Source of the DNA: Monosiga brevicollis MX1
Lineage: Eukaryota; Opisthokonta; Choanoflagellata; Craspedida; Salpingoecidae
Length of the DNA stretch: 64,000 nucleotides
Assembly (NCBI RefSeq): GCF_000002865.3
Contig: NW_001865050.1
Location: 810,820-874,819 of the forward strand
Direction: 5' to 3'
The position numbers were made by a program, and so were the translations under genes. How positions within the stretch are numbered: the first letter of the stretch is position 1; every line of letters starts with the position of its first letter. The notes under the pieces were generated by a model, which saw only the letters and a list, made by a program, of their open reading frames with translations, ran no database searches and had not been told where the DNA came from. Shown piece by piece: positions 1 to 25,474 of this stretch.

Positions 1-489
1 TGCCAACCAACAAGGCGACGAGGGCAACAAGGCCTCGGACTGTGCTGTTATCATGTGAGTCTGATTTCTTTTGTAGTGATGACCAGGTGATGTGCGTGAT
101 GTATTTGCGACTGCGAGCCGACCAAGCTTTCTCAAGTGCTGAGATGAGCTCGATCCGTTCAACCTGGCAAAGGTGAATGACTGTCCATGACATGGTCTTC
201 CTGATTGATGACCGGGCGCTGGCCTCGCCACCCTCGAGTCACCGTTCAAATCCATCGAGAATGCTGCCTCACGTTCATAAATATCCATTCCTCTACAACC
301 ATCTATACCATCGAAAACACAACAGCCAAAAACCACCACACCTACAACAATAACCCCACCAACTCTAGCAACAAGTTTGCGTGTAGCTTTTACCGGATCT
401 ACAATAATTCAACAAATTTCTGCATTAACTTAGTTTTCTTTTTGGCCGGTTGCTAATCTGTTGCGAGAAAAAAAAAAATAAAATAAAAT
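1..489. other. Spacer / 5' flank of PPIP5K gene
   Basis: No convincing gene. Bases 2-53 are open in the frames I checked and end at a good splice donor (GTGAGT at 55), so the first 54 bases could be the tail of an exon of an upstream plus-strand gene, but they are too short to identify. The last 20 bases before the PPIP5K start codon are an A-rich run (about 468-488). The rest is AC-rich low-complexity sequence without recognisable domains. Confidence 0.3.
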
Positions 490-3400
490 ATGGCGTCGCC
501 ACGACGGAGCAAGGGTCAGGGGCGAAGCCGTAGCAATTCAGATGGCGCCGTCGTCCCTCCACTCAACCTACAGCCATCCATTGGTCGTTTGCTGGAGGAG
601 GCCCGCAATCGTCTACAGGTGCGGTCACGGTCGGCGTTGCTCGCTCGACTGAGCGTGGTCGTGGTCAGCCCGCCCGCGTTGGCGTGCAACTCACAAAGCG
701 TTTGTTGGTCCGATGCAGACGGACGGTGAGGATCCCAAAGTCCGCTCTTATGCTCATTCAGAGGTATGTCGCTTAGCCACACCGTTTCATCAGCTCCCGT
801 TTCTGGCTTGGGCGCGTGCCATGGCTTTTGCCATGCATCCCTCGGTCGTGCCTGACGAGCAACGGTGGCCTGGGTGTAGAATAACTCTGGGGACGCCACG
901 CCAGCCACCACACCAGTGTCGGCGGTTCCACAACATCACATGTTCAATGACACCTTCAACACACTCGAAGCCGTGGCCACCATGGCGGGCTCGGTGACCA
1001 GCCCACCCAGCGGCACGCCCAGCCCCGCACCTGGTGGCAGCCGACTCGAGCCACCGACCCCCGACGATCCACGTTCGCCCGTCAGTGGCAGTAATGATAA
1101 CAAGGCCATGCGGCCTCGCTCGCAGAGTGACCCGGCCGAGCATGACAAGAAGCCTGTGCTGGTACGCTCGCTCCTCCGCTCTAAACTGCATGTCATGAAA
1201 GTTCTTGCTTTGTTCGCAGGGTGCTGGCTTTTAATGTGTGCTTGCACATTCTCATCGTCGATGGCATTTGCCTGTCCCCGACCTCGAATGCTTGCAGGAC
1301 AATATTTGCTACGTCACTTCACTTGCAACTTGGGTTGATTCAGAGAAGGATGAGGCACCTGCAGCACAAGTGCCGGTTCGTGCAACACAGAGAGATATAG
1401 ATGTAGAGAGGGGGAGAAGGAGAGGTTGCGGTTGTGGACAATCTTTGGCCGTTGCGAGCTTTACCCTGCCCCGACCCTTGCTCATTGATGCCATTTTGCT
1501 GTGTCATCTTTGTGCAGGCCACGCCACCTTCTGGTCAGAACTCAAAAGATGGCAACAAGCTTCTCTCCCGGCGCTATACCTCGAGCACGGATGAATTTCG
1601 CTCCCCGCGCCGCCTTCATGATGGTGAGTGTGCACGTCCGAAGACCGTTGGCTTTGAAGCTCTTAGGGAGGACAATCTCTCATCCACATTGTGTCGAGCT
1701 GTTGCAGAAAGCGATCTTGCTGATGAGCGCCCGCTGCATCACGTGACACTGATGGTCATCGCTATGGAGAAGAAGGTTATGGCCAAGCCAATGCAGGTGT
1801 GTTTGTATGCCGTCGCCGGGATTCTGTGTGTTTGAGTGCGTGTGCGTGTTTGAGTGTGCGTGTGTGTGTGCGCGTGTGTGCTTGCTTTTTCCGGCCACCG
1901 GCACACTTTGCCGTTGTTGCTTCTCCTCATCTACGTGGGATGGAGGCATTTAGCGTTGTAGTTGAATTTCGTTTTGCTTTTTGCTTTTTGCTTTTTTTCT
2001 TTTTTCGTTTCTTACCCCTGTGCTCACTGGGCTCTGGTCGTGTCGGCGGCGGTGAGTTTGGCAGAACATTTTGAAGAACATGGCCGTGTATGCCGAGTTT
2101 CAAATCCTCGTCTTGTCAGAGTCACTTCTGATGAATGCGCCCGTGGAGCATTGGCCACTCTGCGATTGCCTTATCGCTTTTTACTCCTCCGGGTTTGTTG
2201 TCGCTTCATCGCTGCACGGCCATGAATCCGGTTCATAGCATTGTCCCCAGCGCCTCATTCTGTTGTCTTTGTCCGCTTCGCTCGGTGGTCGATTTGTGTC
2301 AACGTGCTGCCATAGATATCCGCTGAGCAAGGTGCAAGACTACGTCAAATTGCGCTCACCCTTTCTCCTCAATGATCTGGCCACACAGCATCTCCTGCTA
2401 GACCGCCAGTCTGTCTACGAGTGAGTTTGTTTTTTCCCTGATGGCCCCACTACTACTCCTCCTGCCCATGTTTGATTGTCACCGCATCGGCCTCGGCTCT
2501 TCTAGGATTTTGGAGGAGAATGGAATTCCCTCGCCTCCACACATGGTGCTGCGACGCAGCGCTGGTGACGTGGTCGTCGAGCGGGAGGATGCCATTGAGA
2601 TCAATGGCAAGGTCATGCCCAAGCCGTTTGTGATGAAGCCACTTGATGCCGAGAATCACAACGTACGCTCGAGCCATGCATTTTTGTCCGGGCCCCGGTA
2701 CCCAAGACATGAAGTGCTTCAATTTTGTTTACTCCAACATGACCATTGTAATTGCTTATTTGACGTGCTTTGGCTCTTCAGATCTATGTCTACTTTTCAC
2801 AGCATGATGGTGGCGGGGCGCAACACTTGTTTCGCAAGAAAAAAGATAAGGCCTCGGCCTTTTTGCCCGACTGTAACACGATTCCGGAAGAGGGGGATTT
2901 TATTTTTGAGCAATTTCTGCCCACGGGGGGCACCGATATCAAAGTAAGCGCTTGGACGGAGTTGCTGGGCGGCGCTTCAGAAATGCTCGTCATGCTGAGG
3001 TACTTGGGGTGTGACACACGCTCCGCTCACACTTCGACCCTAGGTTTACACTGTTGGCCCCAACTACGCGCACGCGGAGGGTCGTAAGGCCCCCGTCGTC
3101 GATGGCAAGGTTCTTCGGGATGCCAACGGCAAGGAAGTGCGTTGCCCGATCCTCCTGACGACTTTTGAAAAGGTACGGCCGCTTGGCCTGAAGCGTTAGT
3201 GTTGATTTAGATTGCAGGTCATCCGATGAAACTGGATTGGGTGTCTCAAGCATCTCTCGCGTCATGCGTTGTTTCTGTCAGGACATTGCGCGCCGCGTCA
3301 CGCAGGCTTTCAAGCAAAATGTCTGCGGCTTTGATCTGCTGCGCACCTCCGACAACAAGTCCTTTGTGTGCGACGTCAATGGCTGGTCGTTTGTCAAGCG

Positions 3401-6391
3401 ATCCCCGCACTACTATGTAGACTGCGCTCGCATTTTGCGTGAAATGATTCTGTCCGCAATCAGCCCTCTACTCCTCAACAAGAGCTACCCTGTGCCGTCG
3501 GTGGATTACACTTCGGATTCTACAGATTTGCTTGCTTTGCAATCTCCCCAACAACCGTTGCGCCGTGATGCACCCGAACTGCGGTGTGTCATCGCCGTCA
3601 TCCGTCATAGCGATCGCACGCCCAAGGAGAAGCTCAAAATGAACGTGACACACGTGGAGCTGCTCGAGGTGTTCAAGCGCTGGTCCCCTGAAGGCATGTC
3701 CGCGACCAAGGAAGTCAAGCTGAAGTCGCGCAAGCATTTGCAGGACGTTCTTCGGCGCGTGCAGAACCTGCTGCGCTGGGACCAGCGCTTGTCGGACGAG
3801 GAGAAGAGCAACCTCAAACAAATCGAGCACGTGTTGACACGCTGGCCCATCAGCGGCATCAACCGCAAGGTTCAGTTCAAGCCCACGTCTTACGTTCACA
3901 CACGCACTGGCAAACCCATCATTAACAAGGCCCAACTCATCGTCAAGTGGGGTGGCGAGGTCACACCCATGGGCTTGGATCAAGCGCAGAAAGCAGGAGT
4001 CCAGTTTCGTGAGACCATGTATCCATCCAGTGATCAGGACAATGGTCTGCTGCGCCTGCACAGCACCTACCGCCACGACCTCAAGTTGTACAGCTCTGAT
4101 GAAGGTCGTGTGCAGATGACTGCCGCGGCCTTTGCCAAGGGCCTGTTGCAACTTGATGGAGAGATCACTCCCATCTTGGTGAGCCTGGTTCGCAAGGATA
4201 ACGCCGTCAACGCGTTGCTGGACGATACCAAGCCCGCGCGCGCGCAGATGGATGAGGTTAAGAAAAAAGTTCACGGCACGCTGCTTGCCGATCAGTCGTG
4301 GCCCGAAGTGGCGGCCAAGATCGCACCGCTCAGTGCCATGAGCTACTCACAGCGCAAAGCCTTGCGCAAGCTCGACAACCCACACAAAGCCATGACACGA
4401 CTCTACAACTTGGTGGTCGACTTTGTGACGAGTCTCGGGGACCGCATCGAGCAAGATCCAAATGTCCGCGCCTATCAGGGCGAGCCCTTGGTGCTGCTGC
4501 GTCGGCGATGGGAGAAACTGCGCGATGAATTTTTTGACACAGCCAAGCAAAAAGTGAGTTTATTTTGATGTTAGCTCTGCACGTAGAAACTTCAGAAGCT
4601 TGGGCCAACAAGCTCCCATGGTCTGCTACCTTGCAGCACGCCAGGCGTTTTTAGTTGACCCCCGTTTTGCAATGGTTGGCCTGGCGTTTTTGTAGTTTGT
4701 GGTCTCCAAGATTCCTGACATCCACGACTCGATCAAATACCACCTGCAACACAACGCGCACTTTGGCATTGACCAGAGTAGCGAAATTTTGACGCTGTCA
4801 CAGGTTGGTTTGACGGGTTTAGGCATACTTCTTAAAGCGACTGCCTCCAACGTTGGAAGACTCCGGGCAGTCCAGTGATTGACGCGAGATTCTCATGCGA
4901 CCTGTGGCTCTTGCCCCTGCCAGCATTTGGCCAATGTTGTTGTGCCACAAGAGTACGGCGTGACCAACGAGGAGAAGCTTGGCATTGGTTATGCCATTGG
5001 TGAAGATCTCATGCGCAAGGTGCGTGCTTGTTGTCAAATGACCCAATCTGCTGGACCTGTGGCACCTGTGCTGCCGTTGCGTTCGATTAAGTCATGCAAT
5101 GGCTCCTTCCCGTGTAGATCGTGCACGATTTGCGAGTTTCGGCAGGCCAGGACGCCCAGCACGATGTCTTTCAGCATGAAGTCTCGCACCGCCTCAACTC
5201 TGGAGACAGCTTTATCAAAGTAAGTGTGACAAGCTCGTATTTGCGGGGGGAGGGGGGACAGAGAAGAGGGGCGTTGAGTCATAGGTGCGCCGTGCTGCCC
5301 CCTGCCTTTTTCGGCGCGACCTGATTGTATGCATGTCTGCGATGATGGTCCGCAGGTCCGCAGTCCCAATCGTCACGTGCGCACTCGGCTGTACTTCACG
5401 TCAGAGTCCCACATCCATGCCTTGGTAAACGTGTTGCGATGTGGCGACTACGGCCTCTTTAGTGCGGGGCCGACCCGCAAATACAGCTATTCCGACCTTG
5501 TTGAAGGTAATAAGACCTGTTTGATGCACATGGCTGAAAATTTGAATGAGAAAGTGGGGGGCACGAAAATAACAGTTGGGCGGCTTGAAATCATGTCGCC
5601 TTGCCTGGTCTGTTTGACTTCTTAGGTCAAAGCAAGGATGATCAAGCCGGTGCAACCGCCAATGGAGATGGTGATGCTGATCGTGATGAAGATTACCGCT
5701 CTCGCGCTGCCTCTGATCTGGCTTCGAGGTGAGCACGCTGTTGTTCAACTGCTTGCGATTGATTCCACGACCCTCATTCCGCACCGGTTTACTTCCGAAT
5801 GTAGATGGCAGCCACGCCTGCAAGCCAACACGGATGTGCCGCTCGTCTCCTCTCCAGAGGCTTGGCTGAGTGCCAAGGTACCTGCAGCAAATCCATGTCT
5901 TGGGGGTGTCTTGCTTGATTCTGAATTTTCTCGTCGCCAACCCCCTCCTTTTTCTTCCCCCTCCACGTTCATCCTGCCACATCCATCCGACGCAGGCTTA
6001 TATTTGCAAGCTTGAGGAGTTGGGCTACCTCACGCACATTGTGTGCCGGCTTTTTGAAAGACACGACATGGATGGCTCGGGTACGTGGGTTGTCGTTTGC
6101 AAGAGGCACCATGAGTGGCTTGCTCTTTCCTCTTTTTCTTGCTTTTATTTTGTCTGATCTGGGTGCATTGCAATGTTCCCCCCAGATCCCGCTCGTTTTT
6201 TTGTGGAATGGGCGCTGAGTCCAGGTTTGCGCAGCGTCGAAGATAGCGAGGCAAGTGCAGCCACCAATCATGATGTCGAATTGGCACCATTGCGAATTTT
6301 GCATACGGGCATGACGTTGGAGCAGGTGGAGCGCTTCTTCCAGAGTCTGCCATCTCGGGTGACGACGCCTACTGTGAGCGAATCAGCGTAA
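490..6391 (+). CDS. PPIP5K: PPIP5K / VIP1 diphosphoinositol pentakisphosphate kinase-phosphatase, many exons
   Basis: Bifunctional enzyme that phosphorylates InsP6/5-InsP7 to make inositol pyrophosphates and carries a histidine-phosphatase domain. Exons chained in phase: 490-618, 880-1161, 1518-1623, 1708-1796, 2065-about 2189, 2316-2420, from 2505, from about 2782, about 3045-3172, about 3282-4552, then short exons to the stop at 6389-6391. The disordered N-terminus (Ser/Pro/Arg-rich) is followed by the RimK/ATP-grasp kinase: a VMAKPM motif, [28 protein letters not shown] with IYVYF in the next exon, then [10 protein letters not shown] joined to [15 protein letters not shown], and [10 protein letters not shown]. 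The phosphatase core has RHSDRTP (about 3604-3624), where human enzymes have RHGDRTP. The later exon [14 protein letters not shown] matches the conserved C-terminal half. All family landmarks are present, so the gene looks intact. Neighbour on the opposite strand is convergent. Family assignment is very secure; some small C-terminal exon edges are approximate. Confidence 0.95.
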
Positions 6392-6959
6392 TGTGTGATT
6401 TCCCTTCTTGTTACCTGTTTGGCTACCGCAAGAGTATTTCGCGCGCCTCTGTTTTCTGGTGTCTTGGTGCTTTCTTTTTTGTCATTGCGGTGTTATTGTG
6501 CCGGTATCCGCCACCACGAGTTGATGTTGATGCGATCGACCACCTTTAGTCTTCCGAAGCGATTTTGATTGAAGGTTGGTTGTCCTTATTGGCTCATGTG
6601 CCAAGAACGACACCAGTAAAATGACAGAACGACATCACATTGCGGCTTTGTATGCCATGTGGTTTCAAACGTGGTACGGAGCTTCTGTGAAGGTGGAGGG
6701 CGGCGGCCCCGTTGACGTGTATGTTCATATGTACCGAGCAGGCTCAGCCTGCATGGGGCATCAATTGGCATTTGAAAGGCCAAAGTCAATCAGTGCTTCT
6801 GCGGCGTGCTGAGAAGCTTGCCTTCCAGCCATGGGGCAAGGTGCTCATGCAAAAGGGGAAGATAGCGGCGATTCATATGAAAGCCATCACCAATGTCGTA
6901 GGTGTCACTGCGGGGCATTGTGGCACAGTTCAAACCATGCGTGAAGCCGTGCGGACACG
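6392..6959. other. Convergent intergenic spacer
   Basis: Holds the 3' ends of the PPIP5K gene (+) and the SGNH-like gene (-). Open frames here (for example 6576-6812) have no recognisable motifs, so I see no gene. Confidence 0.4.
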
Positions 6960-8381
6960 TCAGGCAGGAACACAGGTTAATTTCGTGAGCAGGTCGCTGA
7001 ACAAATGGTCAACGTACCATAGTGCATGTCCCGAGGAGTCTAACAAAGATGAGAAAAAGTCGAGAACAGCAATGCCGGGGATGGACTGCACACGTTGTGC
7101 CAGGCTATCATTCCATTGTTGGATGACATGATGCAAACGACGGCCGTCGGGGCTACTGTGGCTGGGGGGGATGGGGCGCACGGGGTGGAGCAGAATCTGG
7201 CGCCATCCATGCTGGCATTGAAGGTCTTGCAAGCCGGCAACAAAGCCTTGGAGGGTGGCGGCAATGGCCGATTCCAAGTCTGGATATTTTGGGGGCCGAT
7301 GCGGACCGAAGTGCTTGGGCGAGGCCACGATGGTGCCATCTTCTCGAAGATCGATTTCACCGGCACTTACAATGACAATGCTGTCAGCAGGAATTGAGGC
7401 GGCAGCCGCCAGCAACGTCGCACGATGGATTGAGGGGCGGGGCAGGTTGGGCGTGAAGTGCCACGCCTTCACACCCATGGCCAGGCGCGGGTGCATGACC
7501 ACATGACCAGGCGGACAAACAGGAACGCTCGTCCAGGCCATGGGCAAGATATGGGAGTCACCCAAGAGATAGAGGGCTTTGGTGGCCAACTCCGTTTTGG
7601 GCCAAGGTAAGAGGCGCGCGAGACACACGGCGTAGCGAACTTCGGCGCTGTATTGGCGGATGAGCTGCGCCCTGTGTTGATCAAGCAGATGGGCAATGGC
7701 GGGCGCCATGTGCTGGGCAGCAGCCGGGGCCGTCACGCTTTGCAGGACAAAGGCATGCAATAGCATGCCTTGGTGATATTTGTTGGGTTCGGCGGACGAG
7801 GCAGCGTCCATCACGGGCTGCCACCACTCTCGTACATGCAGAAGCTTCAATGTGGGTGAGCCCTCGGCGTCATTCCCGCGGGCATCACCGGGTGGCCACG
7901 ATGATGGGAAAAGCCGCTCGGTGGCACCTCGCTGGATGGCCAAAGCTGTGCGATTCTGGCCCTGGTTGTGCAAGAGCCTTGACAAGTGATACAGCCAACC
8001 GCAGACCTCGAGCTGCGTCAGAACAAGGGAGCGTGGCTGAGTATCTGTAGGTCTGACCAAGATTGTCTGGAAAGCAGCCGCCCGCAATGCAGTGCAGATA
8101 TGGACGATGCCAACACCGGCATCCCCTCCAGCTTCGGCTGCTACTTTGCCTAACAAAAAGTGGGATTTGGCAAGTCCCACAGGAGAAAGCGTGGCAGCTT
8201 CTTGAGCAGCGGCCTCCGCCAAGGCCCGTGTAAGGTCTGGCCGCCGGCGCTCCTCTCGCCAGGCTGCATACAGGAGGCGCTCCCAAGCGGGCGCCGAGGC
8301 ATCACGCCGGCTCGGTATCGCCAGCCGCGCCGCTGCAATAACGCTGGCCAACTCATCATGCTCGACAGCAGCCTGAGCCAT
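6960..8381 (-). CDS. SGNH/GDSL hydrolase-like protein with helical N-terminal domain
   Basis: Single uninterrupted frame of about 473 codons. I take the ATG at 8381 (start MAQAAVEHDEL); the frame also runs five codons further to a GTG at 8396. Residues 1-270 are Ala/Leu-rich and helical, with a TPR-like look (repeated small-residue helices), but no motif is certain. The C-terminal part has an SGNH-like block I, LLGDSHILPMAW, and a second block, IVSAGEIDLRED, that resembles the GEID variant of the conserved strand-turn. Near the end WYVDHLFSD could hold the Asp/His pair. If the assignment is right, this is an esterase or glycan deacetylase-like fold. No signal peptide or membrane segment is seen, so a cytosolic place is likely. 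It lies 433 bases downstream of the pecanex stop on the same strand; a GT microsatellite sits just upstream. Intronless, unlike most neighbours. Substrate is unknown. Confidence 0.6.
   Translation of the reverse strand: MAQAAVEHDELASVIAAARLAIPSRRDASAPAWERLLYAAWREERRRPDLTRALAEAAAQEAATLSPVGLAKSHFLLGKVAAEAGGDAGVGIVHICTALRAAAFQTILVRPTDTQPRSLVLTQLEVCGWLYHLSRLLHNQGQNRTALAIQRGATERLFPSSWPPGDARGNDAEGSPTLKLLHVREWWQPVMDAASSAEPNKYHQGMLLHAFVLQSVTAPAAAQHMAPAIAHLLDQHRAQLIRQYSAEVRYAVCLARLLPWPKTELATKALYLLGDSHILPMAWTSVPVCPPGHVVMHPRLAMGVKAWHFTPNLPRPSIHRATLLAAAASIPADSIVIVSAGEIDLREDGTIVASPKHFGPHRPPKYPDLESAIAATLQGFVAGLQDLQCQHGWRQILLHPVRPIPPSHSSPDGRRLHHVIQQWNDSLAQRVQSIPGIAVLDFFSSLLDSSGHALWYVDHLFSDLLTKLTCVPA

Positions 8382-8475: not shown

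Positions 8476-8478
<3 letters not shown>

Positions 8479-8539
<61 letters not shown>
8479..8539. repeat. (GT)n microsatellite, about 61 bp
   Basis: Uninterrupted GT dinucleotide tract about 100 bp upstream of the SGNH-like gene start, in the spacer between it and the pecanex stop. A/AAAAC-rich sequence follows it. Confidence 0.95.
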
Positions 8540-8540
<1 letters not shown>

Positions 8541-8726: not shown

Positions 8727-8732
8727 TTTATT
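8727..8732 (-). terminator. Candidate poly(A) signal of pecanex gene
   Basis: AATAAA on the minus strand, 83 bases downstream of the pecanex stop codon. Position and sequence are canonical for a cleavage/polyadenylation hexamer; a coincidental match is possible. Confidence 0.45.
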
Positions 8733-13135: not shown

Positions 13136-13486
13136 CTGCAAAGGTGCGATGCACATTACAATAAGGAAGCATGGCCAGGGCACGATGGCATGGGCTGTCT
13201 GAACTGCACCAGGAAGTGCCACAAGCAATACCCGGCATATCCATCGCCATAATGGTTCCCTACGTACCCAGCACGGGCCGACGAAGTGCCGGCAGCGAGC
13301 ATCTCCGATGGCTCGTGGGCGACAAAAGAATCATCGACAGGGGTTGCCTCACCCAGCCTGTGAGGTCACACACCGTGTCGCCATCAAGACGACGACAACG
13401 GCCGGGTTAGGAACAAGCTAACAAACAACAAGCAAACATGCAATAATGATGATAAAGCAAACGTGAGGTGCGCCAGAGGAGCTTAC

Positions 13487-13860
13487 TCTTGTGAGGAAGG
13501 TGCGGGAAACAGCTCGTGGAAATGGGCTTCAGACGTGCCGTGCTCAAGCAGACACGCTTTGCAGAGATCAAAGTCACACCCATTGCAACGATAACGTTCT
13601 TCTCCTTCCAGCTCACGCGAGCGCCGTCGACAGCCGTTGCAGATCCATCTTTGGAGCCGCAAGAAAATGCCACATCGGGATCGCGCCGAGGACCACGACA
13701 GGTTAGCATGCTCGCCGATGGTCAACAAGACAAGAATGCCATGTGGTTTGATGCAGAAAGTAGCATGTACCTGGAGTTGATGCTGCTGGCATCTACAAGA
13801 GGGTGCTCGTGCAGACTGACGAAGAAGCGTGGCTGCGGTTCGCGACGTAAGGAGCGCCGT
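13487..13860 (-). other. ZZ/DC1-like zinc finger encoded in pecanex exons
   Basis: Across exons 13860-13771 and 13648-13487 the frame reads a His-x-His-Pro-Leu lead (HEHPL), then WICNGC, and after an Arg/Glu-rich loop RYRCNGCDFDLCKACLLEH with HFHEL beyond. Spacing C-x2-C ... C-x2-C-x4-C-x2-C followed by His residues is that of ZZ and DC1 cross-brace fingers. It lies between the acidic region and the main membrane block. No metazoan pecanex that I know of carries one. Confidence 0.7.
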
Positions 13861-14054
13861 CTGTCAAGAAAACGCACGCTCATGAGATCAGGAGCGCAGA
13901 GCATCTCAAAGCAAAAGAGCCGCGGAGGACGAGTTGGCATTGAAGTGTTGGGAAGTCGGGACAATACACGCTCAGTTCCCATGGCCCAGAAACCAGAGCA
14001 AAGCAAAGCAGCACACGGCAATGACGCGATAAAGGCAGAAGCTCATGAAAAGGT

Positions 14055-14117
<63 letters not shown>

Positions 14118-17100
14118 AACATATGGGTTCAACCGTACATGGCTAATGTGACTCGCTCCACACTGCCGCTCAGCGACCCAGCAAGGTCGACGAGAGATTC
14201 CGCTCGGCTACGTGTTCCCCGCACGCTCCGCACTGAGCCACGCCGTGTGGTTGAACGGCGACGACGAACCGTGGCCACATCTGCTGAAGCGCTGCGTGCG
14301 TGCGGATCCTCAACTCGGCGGGCCCGTGGCACATCACTAGCGGTCCATACCTGTGACCCAGCGCTTTCAGCAGCAGCAGCAGTTAACGCTGTCGACAAAG
14401 CCATCGGGGAAGGAGCCGTGTGCACTGCAGTCGCATTGTCTTCCAAATCAGAGGGCTCCGGTGACATGTTCACAGGTGTGTAGACGCCGTCCATGATAAC
14501 AGGCGGTGCGACGGCAAAGTTGAGCTCACGACGCAAGCGTGAAGGCTCGCGAAAGGAGCGGCTTAGTCGTGGTTCTTCAGTCTGGCGACGCGATAAGACG
14601 GGTTGGCGTGCAGATCGGGTACGCCGCACACTTGGACTCGTGCTACCCGCTTCGCTGGCACCCGCCTTGGCTGGGCCCGTGATGGGGGGCACTGGAGCAG
14701 AACTTGGATCGGAAAGAGGGACATCTGTAAGAGTTGAGGCCGCAACCGACGGCTCGGCCGACGCAGTTTCGCCCTCAAGGGCAGCAATAGTGCGCTCCAA
14801 CTCATCATGATAGTCGGCATCCAAAAAAGGAGCGCCGCCTGGTGCGTGTGATCGCGCTGGCGCGCCTGGATGAGGCCCAGGGCCATGCAATAGTTCGTTG
14901 CTGCTCCAAGATGTAGAGCTCCCATCACTGTCATCGTCATCGTTGCTGGACAGATCAAAATCCGAGTCCTCATCTGCAGCCCTTGACGCGATGGTTGTTG
15001 GTGCTGGAATGTCCGCAACGTCCTCTCGGGAGCCGTAAATGTCCTCGGCAGTTGAAGGGTTTACAAACATGGCTGCACGCTCAGTTGCTGGGCCATCCTC
15101 GCCATCCTCGCCATTAGCTTCGTTCTCGTCATCGCCAGCATCGCGGCGTGTACGTTGCCAACCTGCCAGGTGTGGTCGAGGCGGTCGGCGTGGAGGAACG
15201 GCACGATTTTCGGCTTCGACAAGCGTCTGCAGGTTGCGAATGACCTCAATGCATGCTCCAACGTTGAAACGTGTTCCGTGAGTGATTTGCGATTGGATCT
15301 GCAGGGTAACAGGTAAGCGAGTCGAGTGAGGCCGGCAACTGGTGCCAAGAAAAGGTCAAAGCGCGGAACAGAAGCCGTTTCGGAGAAGAATACAAACAAA
15401 CAATGTCATGACCCAATGTCCAGTGCATCAAGCTGCTTACCCTTTCGACGGTCTCTGTTACATTGAGGTACAGTTGGCGCGGATCAACCAACTCGTTGCG
15501 GCGCAACCTGCCGAATTTGAAGTTCAGACATGAACACGCAATCGGTTTTTCGTGAGCACAATGGGCAGGTGACAAACTCGAAAGGAGCAGGAAACGAAAC
15601 AAAGCAAAACATTCCTGACCCCGCCCCCCTTATCGCACACGCGCACTTTTCCCTAGCTAGCCGCTTTCATGCCATGGGACTGCACACTCGAGGCGCGTAC
15701 AAGGTCAAAGCTCGGCTCAAAAGATCATCCAGTGCTTCAAAGTCCATGGCCATGGCTTCAAAAGCCGGATCCTCAGCTGCAAATCAGATATCGATTCGTC
15801 AATGCAACTGGGGGTATGTGACAAAGAACGAATGCAAGCGTGCAGAGGCGTTGCTGGGGGTGTGCACGGACCCTGGAGCAGGCGGAAGGTGCTGGCATTT
15901 TGCCGATATATGGTCCGAGCTCGCTCGCAAGCCGCAATGAGATGGTTGATGCAGGCACCACGGTAGAACTGCCATTGACATGTTAGCATGAGCACTGTAG
16001 GCACGAGTGCACCGTTCGATTGGATGGCACGGGGGACGTACAATTGCAGCATCGTGCGCTGGCATGTCTGCCGCCACGTTCAAGGTGGCAAGATCCATGG
16101 ATCCTAGACACCAAGAAGAGACCACGGTCAGCACGGAGGATGTGGCAAACCTTGTCGAGCCACCATGTGGTGCAGGGTTTGCCCGCCTACTTACGGCCCA
16201 TGTAGTCTTGAAATCGACGTGCAAGCTCGGCATTGGAGCTCGCATTCTGCAGAAACTGCCCAATCCGGCCTGGAACCATATATTGATGTCGAAGGCTGGG
16301 GCGTGCTGGAAGAGGTGGGGGCGCGTCATCCTGGCTTTGTGGGTCTATTGCCGCCGGCTCAGGCGGCGACGGCCGCGGCATCGTCTCAGGACGCCCGAGA
16401 TTATCCAGCTAACATTCAAATGCTCATGAGTTCTTGGGCAAAGCCTTTTTCTTATCCCCATGAGCAAGTGACAAGGGCGCAGGTCGGTCAAGCCAATGAA
16501 AGTACGAAACAGTACCAAAGGATCAGTGTTGAGAAGCGGTCTGAGCGTTATGCTCTCATTGCGCAAGGCCGTGGCCAACACATGCCTGAGCCTAACGGTG
16601 AGGTACAAACATGCGTAGTGATGAGGTGACGGCAGCTACAGTGGTGCCACGGATCTAGCAGGGCTGAGCTTCAAGACTTGCGTGCGACAGTCGACGCCGC
16701 CGACATGATATTGCTGAAACCTCAAGTGTACAATGACGTGGGTACAGCGATCATTCTCCAGTCTACGTCAAGTTAGGTGGGTCAGGCAAGGGGTATCAAT
16801 GCCAGCATGTATGTTGCTGGGCTTGCACTAAAGGCGGTGTGCCGAGCTCGGCCAAAGTCAAATCAACGGGTGACGAGATTGGTTGCCAAGCGCCAAAAAT
16901 CGCCATACTTGATGGAGAGGACGTCGTCGGGATGAACTTCACTGGAACGAAATGCAAACCAGCCTGGTCCAGGTTTGGCGCGCAAAAGACGCTCCATGTG
17001 GCGTCGGCCCATCGCACCGAGCTTCCAGCTGCCAAAAAGATGTTTGGCACGATTGAAATGAGCAAGAGACGTGACAGAGAAGCGTTGCATTGCCTCGGCG

Positions 17101-18084
17101 AACGAACGTGCGATGGGGCTTGTCTTGGACAACAAAGAGTGCGCGACAGCTTTGAGTACGTACAGCTCTTCATCGCGGCCTGGAATCGTGGTTTTTAGGA
17201 ACAGGCCATTGGTCATGTTGTTGAGCCGGACAGTCAGCGTTTGATCTTCCTTGTCGAAAACGGGATCCAACTCCAGGTGTGGAATTAAATCCAAAGCTGG
17301 GGCCAAGGTGATGGGGAGGGATTGTGCGGAACTGCTCAGAGGGGAAGCCTCTTGCTCATGGTCAGCCTCATCTAGAATCTACAAGGGGCATCAACGGGAG
17401 GGGGGGGGGGGGGGGGGAANNNNNNNNNNNNNNNNNNNNNNNNNNNNNNNNNNNNNNNNNNNNNNNNNNNNNNNNNNNNNNNNNNNNNNNNNNNNNNNNN
17501 NNNNNNNNNNNNNNNNNNNNNNNNNNNNNNNNNNNNNNNNNNNNNNNNNNNNNNNNNNNNTGGGGGGGGGGAGGGAGGTGGTAGTGGCGTGAGATGGGGA
17601 AGCGTACGAAAAGACAAGGGAAGCATGGGCATGAAGTGCAGGCCATAGCTGTAAACGCAAGGATCTGGCTAACAAATACTCAAAGTCGGGCCTCGGCTGC
17701 TTCAAGAACATGTCAAGCAAGCGACACACCTGGTGAAGACGATAGGAGATGAGATGCGCGGCGGCAAAGGCCAACGCAAAAGCAATGGCGGTCGCGCATT
17801 TGGCGACGACCGACACCCGTCCGTCATAAACCTGCATAGCAATGGAGATTGGGTTGAGAGAATGTGCATGTCGAGGGTGACGGTCAGCGGTGGAAGCTGT
17901 GTCAATCGCGGGCCAGCTCACGAACCAAAGCGAGGGCAAGGGGAATGCAGCAGAGGGCGATCCAAGTGTAGACGTGCAGAACGTTGATAAAGCGATGGGC
18001 CGAGCGCTCGAGGCGTAAGCCACCAAACAAAGATGGCCAAAAGCCTTGGGAGAAGAAAACGGCGACTTCGTCGCCATCTGCCAT
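13487..18084 (-). CDS. PCNX: Pecanex homologue, 5' exons (N-terminal membrane segments, SH2-like region, acidic region, zinc finger)
   Basis: Twelve exons that join in phase to the large exon: 18084-17926, 17831-17730, 17378-16909, 16762-16651, 16408-16195, 16103-16042, 15968-15872, 15776-15701, 15507-15441, 15298-14139, 13860-13771, 13648-13487. The start ATG at 18084 opens the pecanex N-terminal signature (QGFWPSLFGGLRLERSAHRF, then INVLHVYTW and two hydrophobic helices, ending YRLHQ), which aligns with the human QGVWxxLxGG...YRLH start. Then follow a STAT-like linker/SH2 region, a Pro-rich segment, a helical region with two GACI motifs, an acidic Ser/Asp-rich region (around 14900-15000) and a ZZ/DC1-like zinc finger. 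Every splice join keeps frame, and donors are mostly GTACGN, GTAAGN or GTGTGT; GTTCGT (17925), GTCCGT (15871), GTATGG (16908) and GTGGCA (16650) are weaker. The second intron contains the assembly gap. The alternative is a separate gene between pecanex exons; phase continuity argues against it. Confidence 0.75.
14056..14114. repeat. (CA)n microsatellite in pecanex intron
   Basis: Uninterrupted CA tract of about 59 bases just inside the intron that follows the donor at 14138 (minus-strand gene). Confidence 0.95.
16651..17105 (-). other. SH2-like domain with STAT-type linker inside the pecanex gene
   Basis: Split by the 16763-16908 intron. A helix (around SFAEAMQRF) precedes a Trp (17027) and the pattern WKLGAMGRR, then LLRAKPGPGWFAFRSSE, the SH2 beta-B strand with its phosphotyrosine-binding Arg (codon at 16949-16947) in FAFR where the family has FLVR or FLLR. 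After the intron THVIVHLRF and YHVGG fit beta-D and beta-F. The helix plus W-x-x-G-x-x-G lead-in is the STAT linker/SH2 style. Seen: spacing, Arg, hydrophobic pattern. Inferred: SH2 fold. Confidence 0.6.
17400..17571. other. Assembly gap (Ns 17420-17560) flanked by poly-G
   Basis: 141 unknown bases flanked on both sides by G homopolymer runs (C on the minus strand). It lies in the second intron of the pecanex gene, between the donor at 17729 and the acceptor before 17378, so coding sequence is probably unaffected. A sequencing stop at a long G/C homopolymer is the likely cause. Confidence 0.95.
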
Positions 18085-18971
18085 GGCGATGGTTCGCGCA
18101 GCTCAAGGTCTCGACACGAGTGAAGGCTGACACGTCAGTCAATGCTGAGACGCCCCGGACAGGGCGACGCGGCTCAGCGCGGGTGGCTCTGTTTCCCCGT
18201 GCACATGATCTGCATTGGAAACGGCAGGCTGCTCAGCTGGCTTGATGGGCTTGCTACTGGTGCGACCAAGTATACGCGGTGCGACACGGCGCTGCTATCA
18301 GAGAGGACAAACAGGCTGTGTGCTGGTGGAAGGCTCAGCTTTGTGCTTGCAAGGGCAGCAATGCGCGAAGCAAGTCGTGCCGGATATTGGCCCCGTCTGC
18401 TTGTCAATGCATGCAAACAGAACACCGATATCAGCATTTTGTGAGCGAGCAAAGGAATAAGCCAGGTACGGTCCCGCGCCGCGCTGCGCAGGCAACAGCA
18501 GGTTGCAGTCGCATCATCAAAAGGCCAACGTCACAAAGTCACGTCGTCTGTGCCCCCTTGGCCCCCGATTGACCTCGACAGCGGCTTTCCTTCCGTCCCT
18601 TCTCGTCCAGCACCAAGCTGCACCACGCCCTCGTCGCTGCTCACCGGACAGCACCCCCAAATGCCCATCAACGGCCAGACTTGACCCTCTCCAACCACGT
18701 TCCAGTGACCGTGGGCGCTGCCCTTTCATTCCATTCTGCGGTCACGACTCACCTCTTGCCCAAATTTGGCTTGAACAGAACAACATGCAGCATATATCGT
18801 AGATAATGACGATGTCTACGGGCGAGCAAAGCAACAACAAGCTGAAACAAATGAGAAGAAGATGTAGTCCAATATAGGGTTTGTGAAGACACCAACAGCT
18901 GGTATGGGTATTGTCAGATAATATTGTCAGATTACGACTGTCGCATAACGACATCCCACCCACCAGCCGTG
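18085..18971. other. Divergent spacer between pecanex (-) and methionine aminopeptidase (+)
   Basis: About 890 bases that should hold both promoters and 5' untranslated regions. Open frames here have no recognisable motif. The only structured feature I see is the ATTGTCAGA doublet close to the aminopeptidase start. Confidence 0.4.
18909..18932 (+). promoter_or_regulatory. ATTGTCAGA doublet, candidate promoter element
   Basis: Two copies of ATTGTCAGA (18910-18918, 18923-18931), 40 bases upstream of the methionine aminopeptidase ATG. The same word recurs in doublets at 37788-37812 and 41972-41993, the latter just 17 bases before another start codon. Function is inferred only from position. Confidence 0.3.
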
Positions 18972-20454
18972 ATGGCGGCAGTGTGGAACCGGAGCGGTCG
19001 GGCGGCTTTGGCAGCGCGGTGCAGGGGCGGGGTGTGGTTGGGCTTGAGCGCGGTGTGCGCTGGACTGGCGCGGAGGGAAATGCGAACGAGCGAGGTGCTG
19101 CGGCGTGGGGGTATCTCAACTTTGTTTCAGCGGCGACGCCAAACGCCTCACAACCTGCCTTATCAGCTGGTTACCAAGGCGCACGCACCGGGGGACGGCG
19201 ATATCTTGGCAGTGCCGGAGCACATAGCTCGTCCGCCCTACATTGTCGACCCAAACGTGGCCCTACCGGACGTGTTTCACGATGACGTGCCCATCTTACC
19301 AGCGGCGGATCGCCCGGCACTGCGGGCCGCGGGGCGCCTCGCAGGCCAGACGATGGCGCATGCGTGTGCCTTGGCCGTGCCGGGCTGTAGCACGGCTGAG
19401 CTCAATGCGCAGGTGCACGCCTTCATCGTGGGACACGATGCCTATCCATCCACCGTCAACTACATGGCCTTCCCAGCGGCCACTTGCACAAGCGTTAACA
19501 ACTGCATCGTGCACGGCATTCCTGCACACAACGTCGTCCTACAGGAGGGCGACCTTATCAGCATTGACATTACCGTCTACTTTCAGGGCCACCATGGTAC
19601 GAACGGGCCTGGCTCAACACGTCAGCCCCGCCCCACCCATGCCGCCTCAGCTTGCCGCGCCACTGTCCTTCTTTATTCTCTCAGTTGATTGCACCCCTTC
19701 AGAAAAATAAAAAGAACTCACTTTTGACGTGCGGTGCACGCTGTAGGCGATCTGTGTCGAACGGTCCTCGTGGGGGCTGCGCAGGATGATGTGGCTCCTC
19801 GCTTAGTACAAACGGCCCGAGAAGCCTGCGAAGCTGGCATCGCTGCTTGTGGTCCAGGTCAAGAGTACGTACTGCCACCCTCATCAAAGTAGAACCCCCC
19901 GCTCCGCGTGTCACCCATACCTTGACTGTGCCCTTATCCCTCGGGCCGACGCCAACGTAGGTATTCGGACATTGCGCGTGCCATTGAGACCCATGTCGAG
20001 AAACAAGGCTTCTTTGTAAGCCCGTACTTTACAGGCCACGGTATCGGCAAGCACTTTCATCAAGCCCCTGGTGTAAGATTTCTGGTCGCCATGTACAAAG
20101 GCACCTGACTTGCGTCTCGGCCTCTCAGCACCCTACCCTTCGCCCAACACTTGATAGATCCACCATGAGACACAAGTTGACTCGGCTAGCGACCTCCGCA
20201 TGCTGCCCGGCCACGTTTTCACGATTGAGCCCATCATTCACGAGACGTCAAACGTTGAGTTTGAGATTCTTTCGGATAATTGGACTGCCCTTACGATGGA
20301 CGGCAGTCGCACGTCCCAATTCGAGCAAACCATCATGATAACCGAAACGGTAGGCAAGGGTCCTATCGCGATGGCGATGGCAGCAACGCAAGCGCTGGTT
20401 GATGTAGCACGCTTGAATCTCATGTCGCGCCCTGCGTCCATCGGCATGTCTTAG
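18972..20454 (+). CDS. METAP1D: Type I methionine aminopeptidase, mitochondrial type (MAP1D-like)
   Basis: Removes the initiator methionine; dinuclear metal enzyme. The ATG at 18972 opens an Arg/Ala-rich, acid-free N-terminus (MAAVWNRSGRAALAARC...) typical of a mitochondrial presequence, about 55-60 residues. The catalytic domain has all expected ligands and the substrate His: NNCIVHGIP (His), SIDITVYFQGHHGDLCRTV (two Asp, the second reached across an intron), GHGIGKHFHQAPG (His), FTIEPI (Glu) and SQFEQTIMIT (Glu). Exons: 18972-about 19597, about 19746-19859, about 19961-20070 and a last exon from about 20158 to the stop at 20452-20454; GT-AG introns. No zinc-finger N-domain, which separates it from cytosolic MetAP1. 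The ATTGTCAGA doublet lies 40 bases upstream and an AATAAA follows the stop by 26 bases. Identification is secure; targeting is inferred. Confidence 0.93.
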
Positions 20455-23715: not shown

Positions 23716-24049
23716 CAGATGCTCACCCTACCGACTTTATCAACACAAAAGGCCGAAGACGTTTGGTGCTTTGTGATGGTGTGTGTTCAGGTAAGATGCT
23801 GGAGCCGTTCTCTTTTGCTTCACCTGCGCCTTGTGTGTGTGTGTGTGTGTGTGCGCGTGCGTGTGTGTGCTCGCCTTGTGGCTTTGCCGCTGTGAAGGCG
23901 GCTGAGCGTCGAACGCCAATGTGTATTTGCGCAGGCGTATGGTTCACCAGTGCTGGGCTCGGGGGCTTGAGGGTCTCCGACACGGTGTGCGACAGTCGAA
24001 TGAGGGTGATGAGGCTGGCAGCGTACAGTTTGGACGTTGACCGGTCAAC

Positions 24050-25474
24050 ATGGCCCAATCTTCGGGCGTGTTGCTTCACAACCGCTACTGGCTCTGCGAG
24101 GTGCTTGGTCTCGGCGCCACAGCCCTTGTTCGCAAGGCCCTCGACATGAATTGCAGTACTGTTGTGGCGCTCAAGTTTTTTCATCGCGGTTGTGAGCACA
24201 GTTACGCTCGTGAGCTGGCAGCCCTGCAGGAGCTCACGGATGCCCCCCACGTTGCACGTTTGCTGGATCACTTTTCCACTTCTTCAGGCCAATACGTTCT
24301 GGTATTGACCTTTATGCCCGGTGGTTCTTTGTACGACCGAATCCGTCCGTCTACCACGGCTCTCATAACCATGGCTGACATTCGGCGGTGGTTACATCAG
24401 CTGTGCCTGGCTGCTCTGCAGTTTGAGCAGCGTCAACTCGTGCATGGTGACATTAAACCCGAAAACTGCCTCATTGATGAACAGGGCAACCTTGTGCTAC
24501 ACGATCTTGGCACAACGGTGGCCCGCCACTCACAATGCGCCGCAGAGACGCCAGGAACCCACCTATACCTGGCTCCCGAAGCCCTCGCCTGCTCACACAA
24601 TAACAGCGCTCAAGATGCTTGGGCGATAGGCTTGGTCTTGTATGCATCGCTGTTTGCCGATCTTCCATGGCCACGTGCCGACAACGGCTGCCCATCCTTT
24701 TATAACTACCGGATGACGGGCCGGCTTCCACTCAGCGATGCACAAATGACCATGATGAGCCCGGCGCTGCGGCCAGTGCTATGGCACCTGCTTGCTCCAG
24801 ATCCAGAGCAACGCATGTCCTTGCAAGCTGCCGCCGCCTTCTTTGCAGCCGATTGCAATTGGTTTGCACCCACCTCTCTCTCGGGCGTCATGGTGGCCAT
24901 GCAGCCCTCTCGTCGTGTCTTGGTTCAACAAAGCGACGATGCCCCTCAGGAGCGTCATGCAAGCCTGGGTACCCACGCAACAAGGGCGTCTTCAATTGCG
25001 AGTCCCCCAGACTCGCCCGCTTTGACCATGGAGCCACGGCACCCAGCCTTAGCCCGTGTTCAAGCCCTCAGCGCGCAAAGGTCGGCCAGCACGCTAAGTT
25101 CGACCGCACAGCCAATACCTGGCCTTCCCGTATGGTCCTGGAGTGATGCGCCTCCTGACAAAGCCTCCCACAATACGCTCAATGGGTCTGAACCAGTCGA
25201 GAGGATAAAGCCGCCCCCGCAAACTGATGCACAACCCTTGTTGAAGCGCACAGTCTCCAGCTTGAGTTGTGCACATTCCACTTCACCCCAAGAAGTACAC
25301 CTTGGATGCGAACCCACACCTGAACTTGATCTCAAACAGGAACCAGAACAACCCCTAAAACACCTTCTTGAACCACAGTCTGAGCCCAAGCCCAAATTCA
25401 AACTTGAAGCTGAGCCTGAACCCCACTCAGCCACTTGGTCGGCCTTACGAAAACTGAGTGGGGATCCAGAATGA
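24050..25474 (+). CDS. Divergent protein kinase with Glu/Pro-rich tail
   Basis: Single exon, 474 codons, ATG at 24050. Residues about 12-275 are a eukaryotic protein kinase domain: LGLGATALVRKA as the glycine loop, VALKFF with the catalytic Lys, HGDIKPEN as the catalytic loop (HGD for HRD; catalytic Asp, Lys and Asn kept) and HDLGTT where most kinases have DFG (the metal-binding Asp is kept). APE is seen as LAPEAL, and an Arg-containing PEQRMS motif ends the domain. The lone HGD is reminiscent of several small divergent kinase groups; I could not place the subfamily. The rest (about residues 300-474) is low-complexity Ser/Pro/Gln-rich, ending in repeated E-P units (QEPEQPL, AEPEPH). No signal peptide or membrane helix. 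Probably active, since all catalytic residues are present. Confidence 0.88.
   Translation: MAQSSGVLLHNRYWLCEVLGLGATALVRKALDMNCSTVVALKFFHRGCEHSYARELAALQELTDAPHVARLLDHFSTSSGQYVLVLTFMPGGSLYDRIRPSTTALITMADIRRWLHQLCLAALQFEQRQLVHGDIKPENCLIDEQGNLVLHDLGTTVARHSQCAAETPGTHLYLAPEALACSHNNSAQDAWAIGLVLYASLFADLPWPRADNGCPSFYNYRMTGRLPLSDAQMTMMSPALRPVLWHLLAPDPEQRMSLQAAAAFFAADCNWFAPTSLSGVMVAMQPSRRVLVQQSDDAPQERHASLGTHATRASSIASPPDSPALTMEPRHPALARVQALSAQRSASTLSSTAQPIPGLPVWSWSDAPPDKASHNTLNGSEPVERIKPPPQTDAQPLLKRTVSSLSCAHSTSPQEVHLGCEPTPELDLKQEPEQPLKHLLEPQSEPKPKFKLEAEPEPHSATWSALRKLSGDPE

What the first reader, a model, noticed from the sequence alone, without database searches (positions are those of the whole stretch)
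13487..18084. Pecanex gene with an embedded STAT-like SH2 domain and a ZZ/DC1 zinc finger
Thirteen exons chain in phase from a pecanex N-terminus (QGFW...YRLHQ) to the pecanex transmembrane block. In between lie a linker plus SH2-like segment with an intact FAFR Arg and, later, a C-x2-C...C-x2-C-x4-C-x2-C finger. Animal pecanex proteins have a disordered region there. A pTyr-binding domain on a multi-pass membrane protein would tie pecanex to tyrosine-kinase signalling in a choanoflagellate.
Basis: partly seen in the sequence, partly recalled or inferred. Interest (0 to 1): 0.82.

Follow-up and report, generated by a model that had tools for sequence, protein, structure and literature searches.

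The report
Pecanex gene carrying an SH2 domain
A choanoflagellate-like genome appears to carry a pecanex membrane-protein gene into which an SH2 phosphotyrosine-binding domain and a DC1 zinc finger have been built, which would link pecanex to tyrosine-phosphorylation signalling if one transcript joins them.

Summary
The observation largely holds. On the minus strand a 14-exon GT-AG chain (18084 to 8815) gives one 2393-residue frame ending in Pecanex_C (E 8.6e-74). The SH2 is real: spliced across 16909|16762 it scores 30.1 bits on a profile of 41 of this genome's own SH2 domains, against at most 8.3 in 5000 shuffles and 7.1 in 12,862 random splice joins. The 60 PDB rows shown of 102 are all SH2 proteins, SHP2 first. 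Phosphotyrosine-pocket residues are intact. Two labels change: no STAT affinity was seen, and the finger is DC1 (C1_2, above cut-off) rather than ZZ (below). Weak points: the SH2 is below Pfam's cut-off, its last helix is missing or degenerate, the exon 4-5 junction is poorly supported, a 141-base gap lies between exons 2 and 3, the pecanex N-terminus is recognised from memory only, and a split into two genes at the 14130 stop is not excluded. No relative outside this genome could be examined. Best reading: a pecanex whose roughly 1,100-residue loop gained SH2 and DC1 modules, plausibly recruiting phosphotyrosine proteins to pecanex membranes; a new combination of known parts.

The parts
17926..18084 (-). 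exon 1: start codon, pecanex-like N-terminus (QGFW motif) and TM1
   Evidence: coding 0.18 bits/codon; hydropathy; pecanex motif recalled
17730..17831 (-). exon 2: TM2, ends ...YRLHQ
   Evidence: found exactly at all four settings of the crude gene finder
17420..17560 (.). 141-base assembly gap in intron 2, the only N run in the window
16909..17378 (-). exon 3: linker and first part of SH2 (SH2 Trp at residue 205, base 17027 downwards)
16651..16762 (-). exon 4: rest of the recognisable SH2 (THVIVHL...YHVGG); its end at 16651 is uncertain
   Evidence: acceptor 16762 best; donor -3.9 bits
16195..16408 (-). exon 5: proline-rich stretch, then probable helical segment; its start is uncertain
16042..16103 (-). 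exon 6: probable helical segment
15872..15968 (-). exon 7: probable helical segment
15701..15776 (-). exon 8: probable helical segment
15441..15507 (-). exon 9: probable helical segment
14139..15298 (-). exon 10: end of the helical segment, then low-complexity acidic and basic loop; donor 14139 not chosen by the crude gene finder
13771..13860 (-). exon 11: first part of DC1 (C1_2) finger, HxH
13487..13648 (-). exon 12: rest of DC1 finger, CxxC...CxxCx4CxxC
13268..13357 (-). exon 13: low-complexity loop
8815..13135 (-). exon 14: end of loop, ten hydropathy peaks (the last three overlap), Pecanex_C domain, stop codon
8727..8732 (-). AATAAA, the only AATAAA/ATTAAA on the minus strand from 18100 to 8601

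Best explanation
A single pecanex gene of a choanoflagellate (probably Monosiga brevicollis; name recalled) encodes a multi-pass membrane protein of about 2393 residues. Its roughly 1,100-residue loop between TM2 and TM3 carries an SH2 domain, an uncharacterised, probably helical segment, and a DC1 zinc finger. Shown: open frame, SH2 homology with pocket residues, DC1 homology, Pecanex_C. Inferred: one transcript, a cytosolic loop, phosphotyrosine binding. Most likely mechanism: the SH2 binds tyrosine-phosphorylated client proteins, or pecanex's own loop tyrosines (DIYGSRE, DADYHDE, DGVYTPV), so that pecanex assembly or cargo handling at the ER or secretory membrane comes to depend on tyrosine phosphorylation, with the DC1 finger as a second docking or structural module.
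For: In-phase 14-exon GT-AG chain, no internal stop. SH2 similarity across the exon 3/4 junction: the 60 PDB rows shown of 102 are all SH2 proteins; best chain SHP2, whole-sequence E 2.9e-5 summed over its two SH2 domains (best single stretch i-E 0.031), best chain with one SH2 domain E 0.0014. Genome-SH2 profile 30.1 bits against nulls of 8.3 and 7.1. The one non-self match in the whole genome is a known SH2 place, 40% identical over query residues 115-181, though at E 0.46. Pocket residues R alphaA2, R betaB5, S betaB7, H betaD4 present (33, 39, 28, 35 of 41 genome SH2s share them; residue names recalled). DC1 30.1 bits, cut-off 26; Pecanex_C E 8.6e-74. Exon 3 begins right after an in-frame stop and its first ATG is codon 55, so it needs an upstream exon. 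The only poly(A)-like hexamer follows the pecanex stop. No gap lies between the SH2 exons and the pecanex TM block.
Against: SH2 below Pfam's cut-off: 19.5 bits alone, 16.3 in 281 residues, cut-off 21. Last helix missing or degenerate. Exon 4 donor -3.9 bits; ranked by splice plus coding score, the best of 45 direct exon 4-5 models is 16732|16246, which would cut the SH2 after THVI, and the model used here (16651|16408) is not among the 12 direct models printed. Exons 4, 5, 12 have slightly negative coding scores. A crude unsupervised gene finder missed the exon 3 donor, exon 4 and exon 12, ended exon 10 at 14270 instead of 14139 at all four settings, merged with neighbours at three settings and split the locus at the other. 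9% of 5734 open random windows reach the coding score of exon 3's first 52 codons. Exon 2/3 spans a gap. Pecanex N-terminus recognised from memory only. Topology untested.
Confidence: 0.68

Rival explanations
1. Two adjacent genes: gene A (pecanex-like N-terminus, SH2, helical segment, low-complexity tail) stops at 14130, and gene B (DC1 finger plus pecanex TM block and C-terminus) starts at an ATG between 13982 and 13883.
For: An in-frame stop follows exon 10 directly. Four in-frame ATGs precede exon 11 with neutral to mildly positive coding score (-0.04 to 0.19 bits/codon). The crude gene finder never used donor 14139. One of its settings split the locus, though elsewhere, between 16863 and 16279.
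Against: A phase-2 donor (AT|GTACGG, 1.2 bits) and a good acceptor (4.1 bits) join exons 10 and 11 in frame (the splice matrices come from the finder's own predictions). No AATAAA/ATTAAA near 14130. Pecanex proteins are single polypeptides with both N-terminus and TM block (recalled).
Confidence: 0.17
2. The SH2 exons belong to a separate small gene between pecanex exons 2 and 5.
For: Exon 4-5 joining is ambiguous; a gap separates exons 2 and 3.
Against: Exon 3 opens right after an in-frame stop at its acceptor and its first ATG is codon 55, so it is not a first exon; the nearest upstream exon fits in phase.
Confidence: 0.08
3. The SH2 is a decaying or truncated remnant that does not bind phosphotyrosine (compatible with either gene structure).
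For: Missing or degenerate last helix; below Pfam cut-off; weak exon 4 coding score; the best-scoring exon 4-5 model would cut the domain after THVI.
Against: All four pocket residues kept and no stop or frameshift in the domain.
Confidence: 0.22

Closest known systems
Pecanex family (Pecanex_C, PF05041; Drosophila pcx, mammalian PCNX1-4)
   Same: Pecanex_C E 8.6e-74; twelve hydropathy peaks in all, three of them overlapping; long loop after two N-terminal TMs (family comparison recalled)
SH2 domains, nearest SHP2 (PTPN11) C-terminal SH2
   Same: Core from alphaA to betaD/E with W, R alphaA2, G.F..R.S, LS and H betaD4
   Different: Last helix missing or degenerate; on a multi-pass membrane protein instead of a phosphatase
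DC1 / C1_2 zinc fingers (PF03107)
   Same: 30.1 bits over positions 2-47 of 48, above cut-off 26
   Different: Set in a pecanex loop; elsewhere in this genome two single-exon places pass the cut-off
Transmembrane SH2 proteins of choanoflagellates (cadherin-SH2 gene model 11339, passage of PMC3082566; Choanoeca perplexa protocadherin-SH2, passage of PMC6040629)
   Same: SH2 on a membrane protein (passages seen)
   Different: Adhesion-type proteins, not the multi-pass pecanex

Membership tests
SH2 domain | Sequence similarity to the SH2 family beyond chance | tested here: met
   genome-SH2 profile 30.1 bits against 8.3 and 7.1 in nulls; PDB: SHP2 E 2.9e-5 over two SH2 domains, 0.0014 for a chain with one
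SH2 domain | Pfam PF00017 gathering score (21 bits) | tested here: not met
   19.5 bits alone, 16.3 in the 281-residue N-terminus, 12.4 for exon 3 alone. A detection threshold, not a structural feature; I therefore call it a divergent SH2.
SH2 domain | Phosphotyrosine pocket: R alphaA2, R betaB5, S betaB7, H betaD4 | tested here: met
   alignment with 41 genome SH2s; residue names recalled
SH2 domain | C-terminal part with helix alphaB | tested here: inconclusive
   profile match ends at position 65; no splice choice restores the helix convincingly
STAT | STAT linker/SH2 affinity | tested here: not met
   no STAT model reported at E <= 10; none among the 60 rows shown of 102; linker search gave no STAT
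Pecanex | Pecanex_C domain | tested here: met
   E 8.6e-74, 248.3 bits, cut-off 27
Pecanex | N-terminal two-TM region with QGxW and YRLH motifs | tested here: inconclusive
   two hydropathy peaks; motif identity recalled, no pecanex N-terminus available to align
DC1 (C1_2) | Pfam PF03107 gathering score | tested here: met
   30.1 bits, cut-off 26, for the spliced 95-residue piece
ZZ zinc finger | Pfam PF00569 gathering score | tested here: not met
   16.8 and 16.2 bits, cut-off 21.4

The most novel reading that the evidence does not exclude
Pecanex, which Drosophila needs for Notch signalling and which is thought to reside in the ER, is in this unicellular relative of animals a direct phosphotyrosine effector: its loop SH2 docks tyrosine-phosphorylated receptors or pecanex's own loop, so that tyrosine kinases control pecanex in the secretory pathway.
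Probability: 0.3. Interest if true: 0.7.

Novelty: new variant of a known kind. Interest (0 to 1): 0.5.

Why it matters
The biochemical role of pecanex is unclear. A review section read here (PMC9645253, section 7) reports ER enlargement on its loss in Drosophila, evidence suggesting that it is ER-resident, and a role upstream of Notch cleavage, with the mechanism still open. A natural fusion of pecanex to a phosphotyrosine-reading domain would point to partners and make a regulatory hypothesis testable. The SH2 lies under Pfam's cut-off and is split by an intron, so a standard domain scan could miss it. The caution is that unusual domain combinations, including SH2 on membrane proteins, are already reported for choanoflagellates (passages of PMC3082566 and PMC6040629).

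Tried and rejected
STAT affinity rejected. ZZ as the best finger label rejected in favour of DC1. Completing the SH2 with another downstream exon: 513 donor/acceptor choices raised the score to at most 34.5 bits (30.1 for the domain used), by peptides without a clear alphaB, and I treat that as chance; among 799 longer models the best was 32.5. Unsupervised gene finding was too crude to decide. The helical segment matched no Pfam family at E <= 10, one PDB chain at E 0.37 (NDUFA13), and no non-self place in the genome better than E 1.63. The diverged second pecanex on C53 matches only residues 2069-2258 convincingly in 20 kb; the pecanex-like N-terminus finds only itself in the genome, and no SH2 match is listed in that 20 kb. 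Viral contigs held no relative of the pecanex C-terminal region: 6 pattern matches, none confirmed. Literature in the open PMC library: pecanex+SH2 gave 11 papers, 10 listed (listing and abstract starts seen; titles unrelated); pecanex+choanoflagellate gave 1, a ctenophore genome (listing only); pecanex alone gave 83, 25 listed. Most subscription papers are not in the library, so absence from print is not claimed.
Full report
Where it is. The window is G000:C45:810820-874819 of a 39.47 Mb genome in 57 contigs with 114 single-exon SH2 matches at E <= 0.001, a lower bound. That fits the choanoflagellate Monosiga brevicollis, but the name is recalled, not given. The SH2 of this finding is not among those 114. 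The window's only N run is 17420-17560.

Gene model. On the minus strand I find 14 exons: 18084-17926, 17831-17730, 17378-16909, 16762-16651, 16408-16195, 16103-16042, 15968-15872, 15776-15701, 15507-15441, 15298-14139, 13860-13771, 13648-13487, 13357-13268 and 13135-8815. All 13 introns are GT-AG (73-351 bases, the longest holding the gap), and the product is 2393 residues with no internal stop. Coding scores, from a codon table of 29 long ORFs (23,860 codons), are positive for 11 of 14 exons and slightly negative for exons 4, 5 and 12 (-0.02, -0.02, -0.09 bits/codon). Junctions were chosen with phase in mind, so phase is not independent proof.

Independent junction tests. I built a profile from 41 SH2 domains of this genome (33 places plus the eight loci L001-L008, chosen mostly for full length from the 114; two of the 41 are identical; L001 was mis-oriented and corrected). 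Exon 3's part alone scores 16.8 bits and the spliced domain 30.1; the best of 5000 shuffles scores 8.3 (4607 reported). Among 66 two-exon candidates 16909|16762 is best at 29.5; the next different pair reaches 22.5. As a genomic null, 12,862 sampled of 85,658 possible joins in window 1-8000, window 18201-64000 and 20 kb of C53 gave at most 7.1 bits. For the finger, C1_2 rises from 20.7 bits (exon 12) to 30.1 when exon 11 and the first residues of exon 13 are added; the cut-off is 26.

Results of the crude gene finder. It was trained on its own predictions (422 introns in the last round) and run at four settings. Exons 2 and 6 came out exactly at all four, exons 8, 9 and 13 at three, exon 1 and exon 11 at one each; the starts of exons 3, 10 and 14 came out at all four. 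Against the model: the exon 3 donor, exon 4 and exon 12 were missed at all four, exon 5 was shortened, exon 7 was lost or shrunk to one base, exon 10 ended at 14270 at all four, exon 14 was cut by extra introns, and the gene was merged with neighbours at three settings and split between 16863 and 16279 at the other.

What the SH2 is. Against PDB sequences 102 distinct chains match at E <= 10. The 60 shown are all SH2 proteins: SHP2, Src, CrkL, Grb2, Crk, HSH2D, SHP1 and Nck1; no STAT is among them. The best E, 2.9e-5 for SHP2, sums its two SH2 domains; the best single stretch has i-E 0.031, and the best chain with one SH2 domain E 0.0014. The only non-self match in the genome is the SH2 place on C48, 40% identical but at E 0.46. 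Pfam SH2 is below its cut-off of 21: 19.5 bits alone, 16.3 in context. The pocket residues R alphaA2, R betaB5, S betaB7 and H betaD4 are kept; 33, 39, 28 and 35 of 41 genome SH2s share them (residue names recalled). The end of the domain is weak. The profile match stops at position 65. Exon 4's donor scores -3.9 bits. 513 alternatives reached at most 34.5 bits without a clear last helix. Ranked by splice plus coding score, the best of 45 direct exon 4-5 models is 16732|16246, which would cut the domain after THVI, and 16651|16408 is not among the 12 direct models printed. I keep 16762-16651 because the profile score rises to its end, but the exon 4-5 junction is open.

Is it part of pecanex? 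For: exon 3 starts straight after an in-frame stop and its first ATG is codon 55, so it needs an upstream exon, and exon 2 fits in phase. No gap lies between the SH2 exons and the pecanex TM block. The only AATAAA/ATTAAA on the minus strand from 18100 to 8601 is at 8732, after the pecanex stop. A divergent M24 peptidase gene lies upstream on the plus strand, which bounds the gene there. Against: exons 1-2 lie across the gap and their pecanex identity is recalled; a split at the 14130 stop remains possible, because in-frame ATGs precede exon 11 with neutral coding score. The coding score of exon 3's first 52 codons is reached by 9% of 5734 open random windows of the same window, coding stretches included.

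Anatomy and function. Hydropathy gives two peaks at residues 35-53 and 59-77 and ten from 1185 on, the last three overlapping. The loop between holds the SH2 (Trp at 205), an unmatched segment of about 330-490 that I judge helical by eye, low-complexity stretches and the DC1 finger (HEHPL at 857). Pecanex_C follows the TM block (E 8.6e-74). In Drosophila, pecanex is suggested to be ER-resident and to act upstream of Notch cleavage (PMC9645253, section 7 read). I infer a cytosolic loop whose SH2 binds phosphotyrosine on clients or on loop tyrosines such as DIYGSRE, DADYHDE and DGVYTPV (listed). No binding or topology was tested.

Novelty. The open-library searches pecanex+SH2, pecanex+choanoflagellate and pecanex alone listed no paper that by title or abstract start describes such a fusion (10 of 11, 1 of 1 and 25 of 83 papers listed). 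SH2 on membrane proteins and odd kinase domain combinations are already reported in choanoflagellates (passages of PMC3082566, and PMC6040629). This is therefore a new combination of known modules.

Noticed in passing
L010; G000:C53:138484-138927 (minus): A second, strongly diverged pecanex-like gene (Pecanex_C 84.6 bits) without recognisable N-terminus or SH2 match.
   Followed up: partly
window 18855-20451 (+): M24 metallopeptidase (methionine-aminopeptidase-like) gene, divergent from the pecanex gene; first ORF 53.4 bits, a second piece at 20158-20451 below cut-off.
   Followed up: partly
window 24041-25471 (+): Protein kinase ORF (Pkinase 120.1 bits).
   Followed up: no
window 3192-4565 (+): Histidine phosphatase (branch 2) ORF, 119 bits.
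   Followed up: no
window about 14057-14118 and 8478-8540: Long (GT)n/(CA)n runs, one in the intron between exons 10 and 11 and one about 300 bases beyond the pecanex stop.
   Followed up: no
window about 15200-16300 (minus): Probably helical segment between SH2 and low-complexity loop that matches no Pfam family and no convincing PDB chain.
   Followed up: partly
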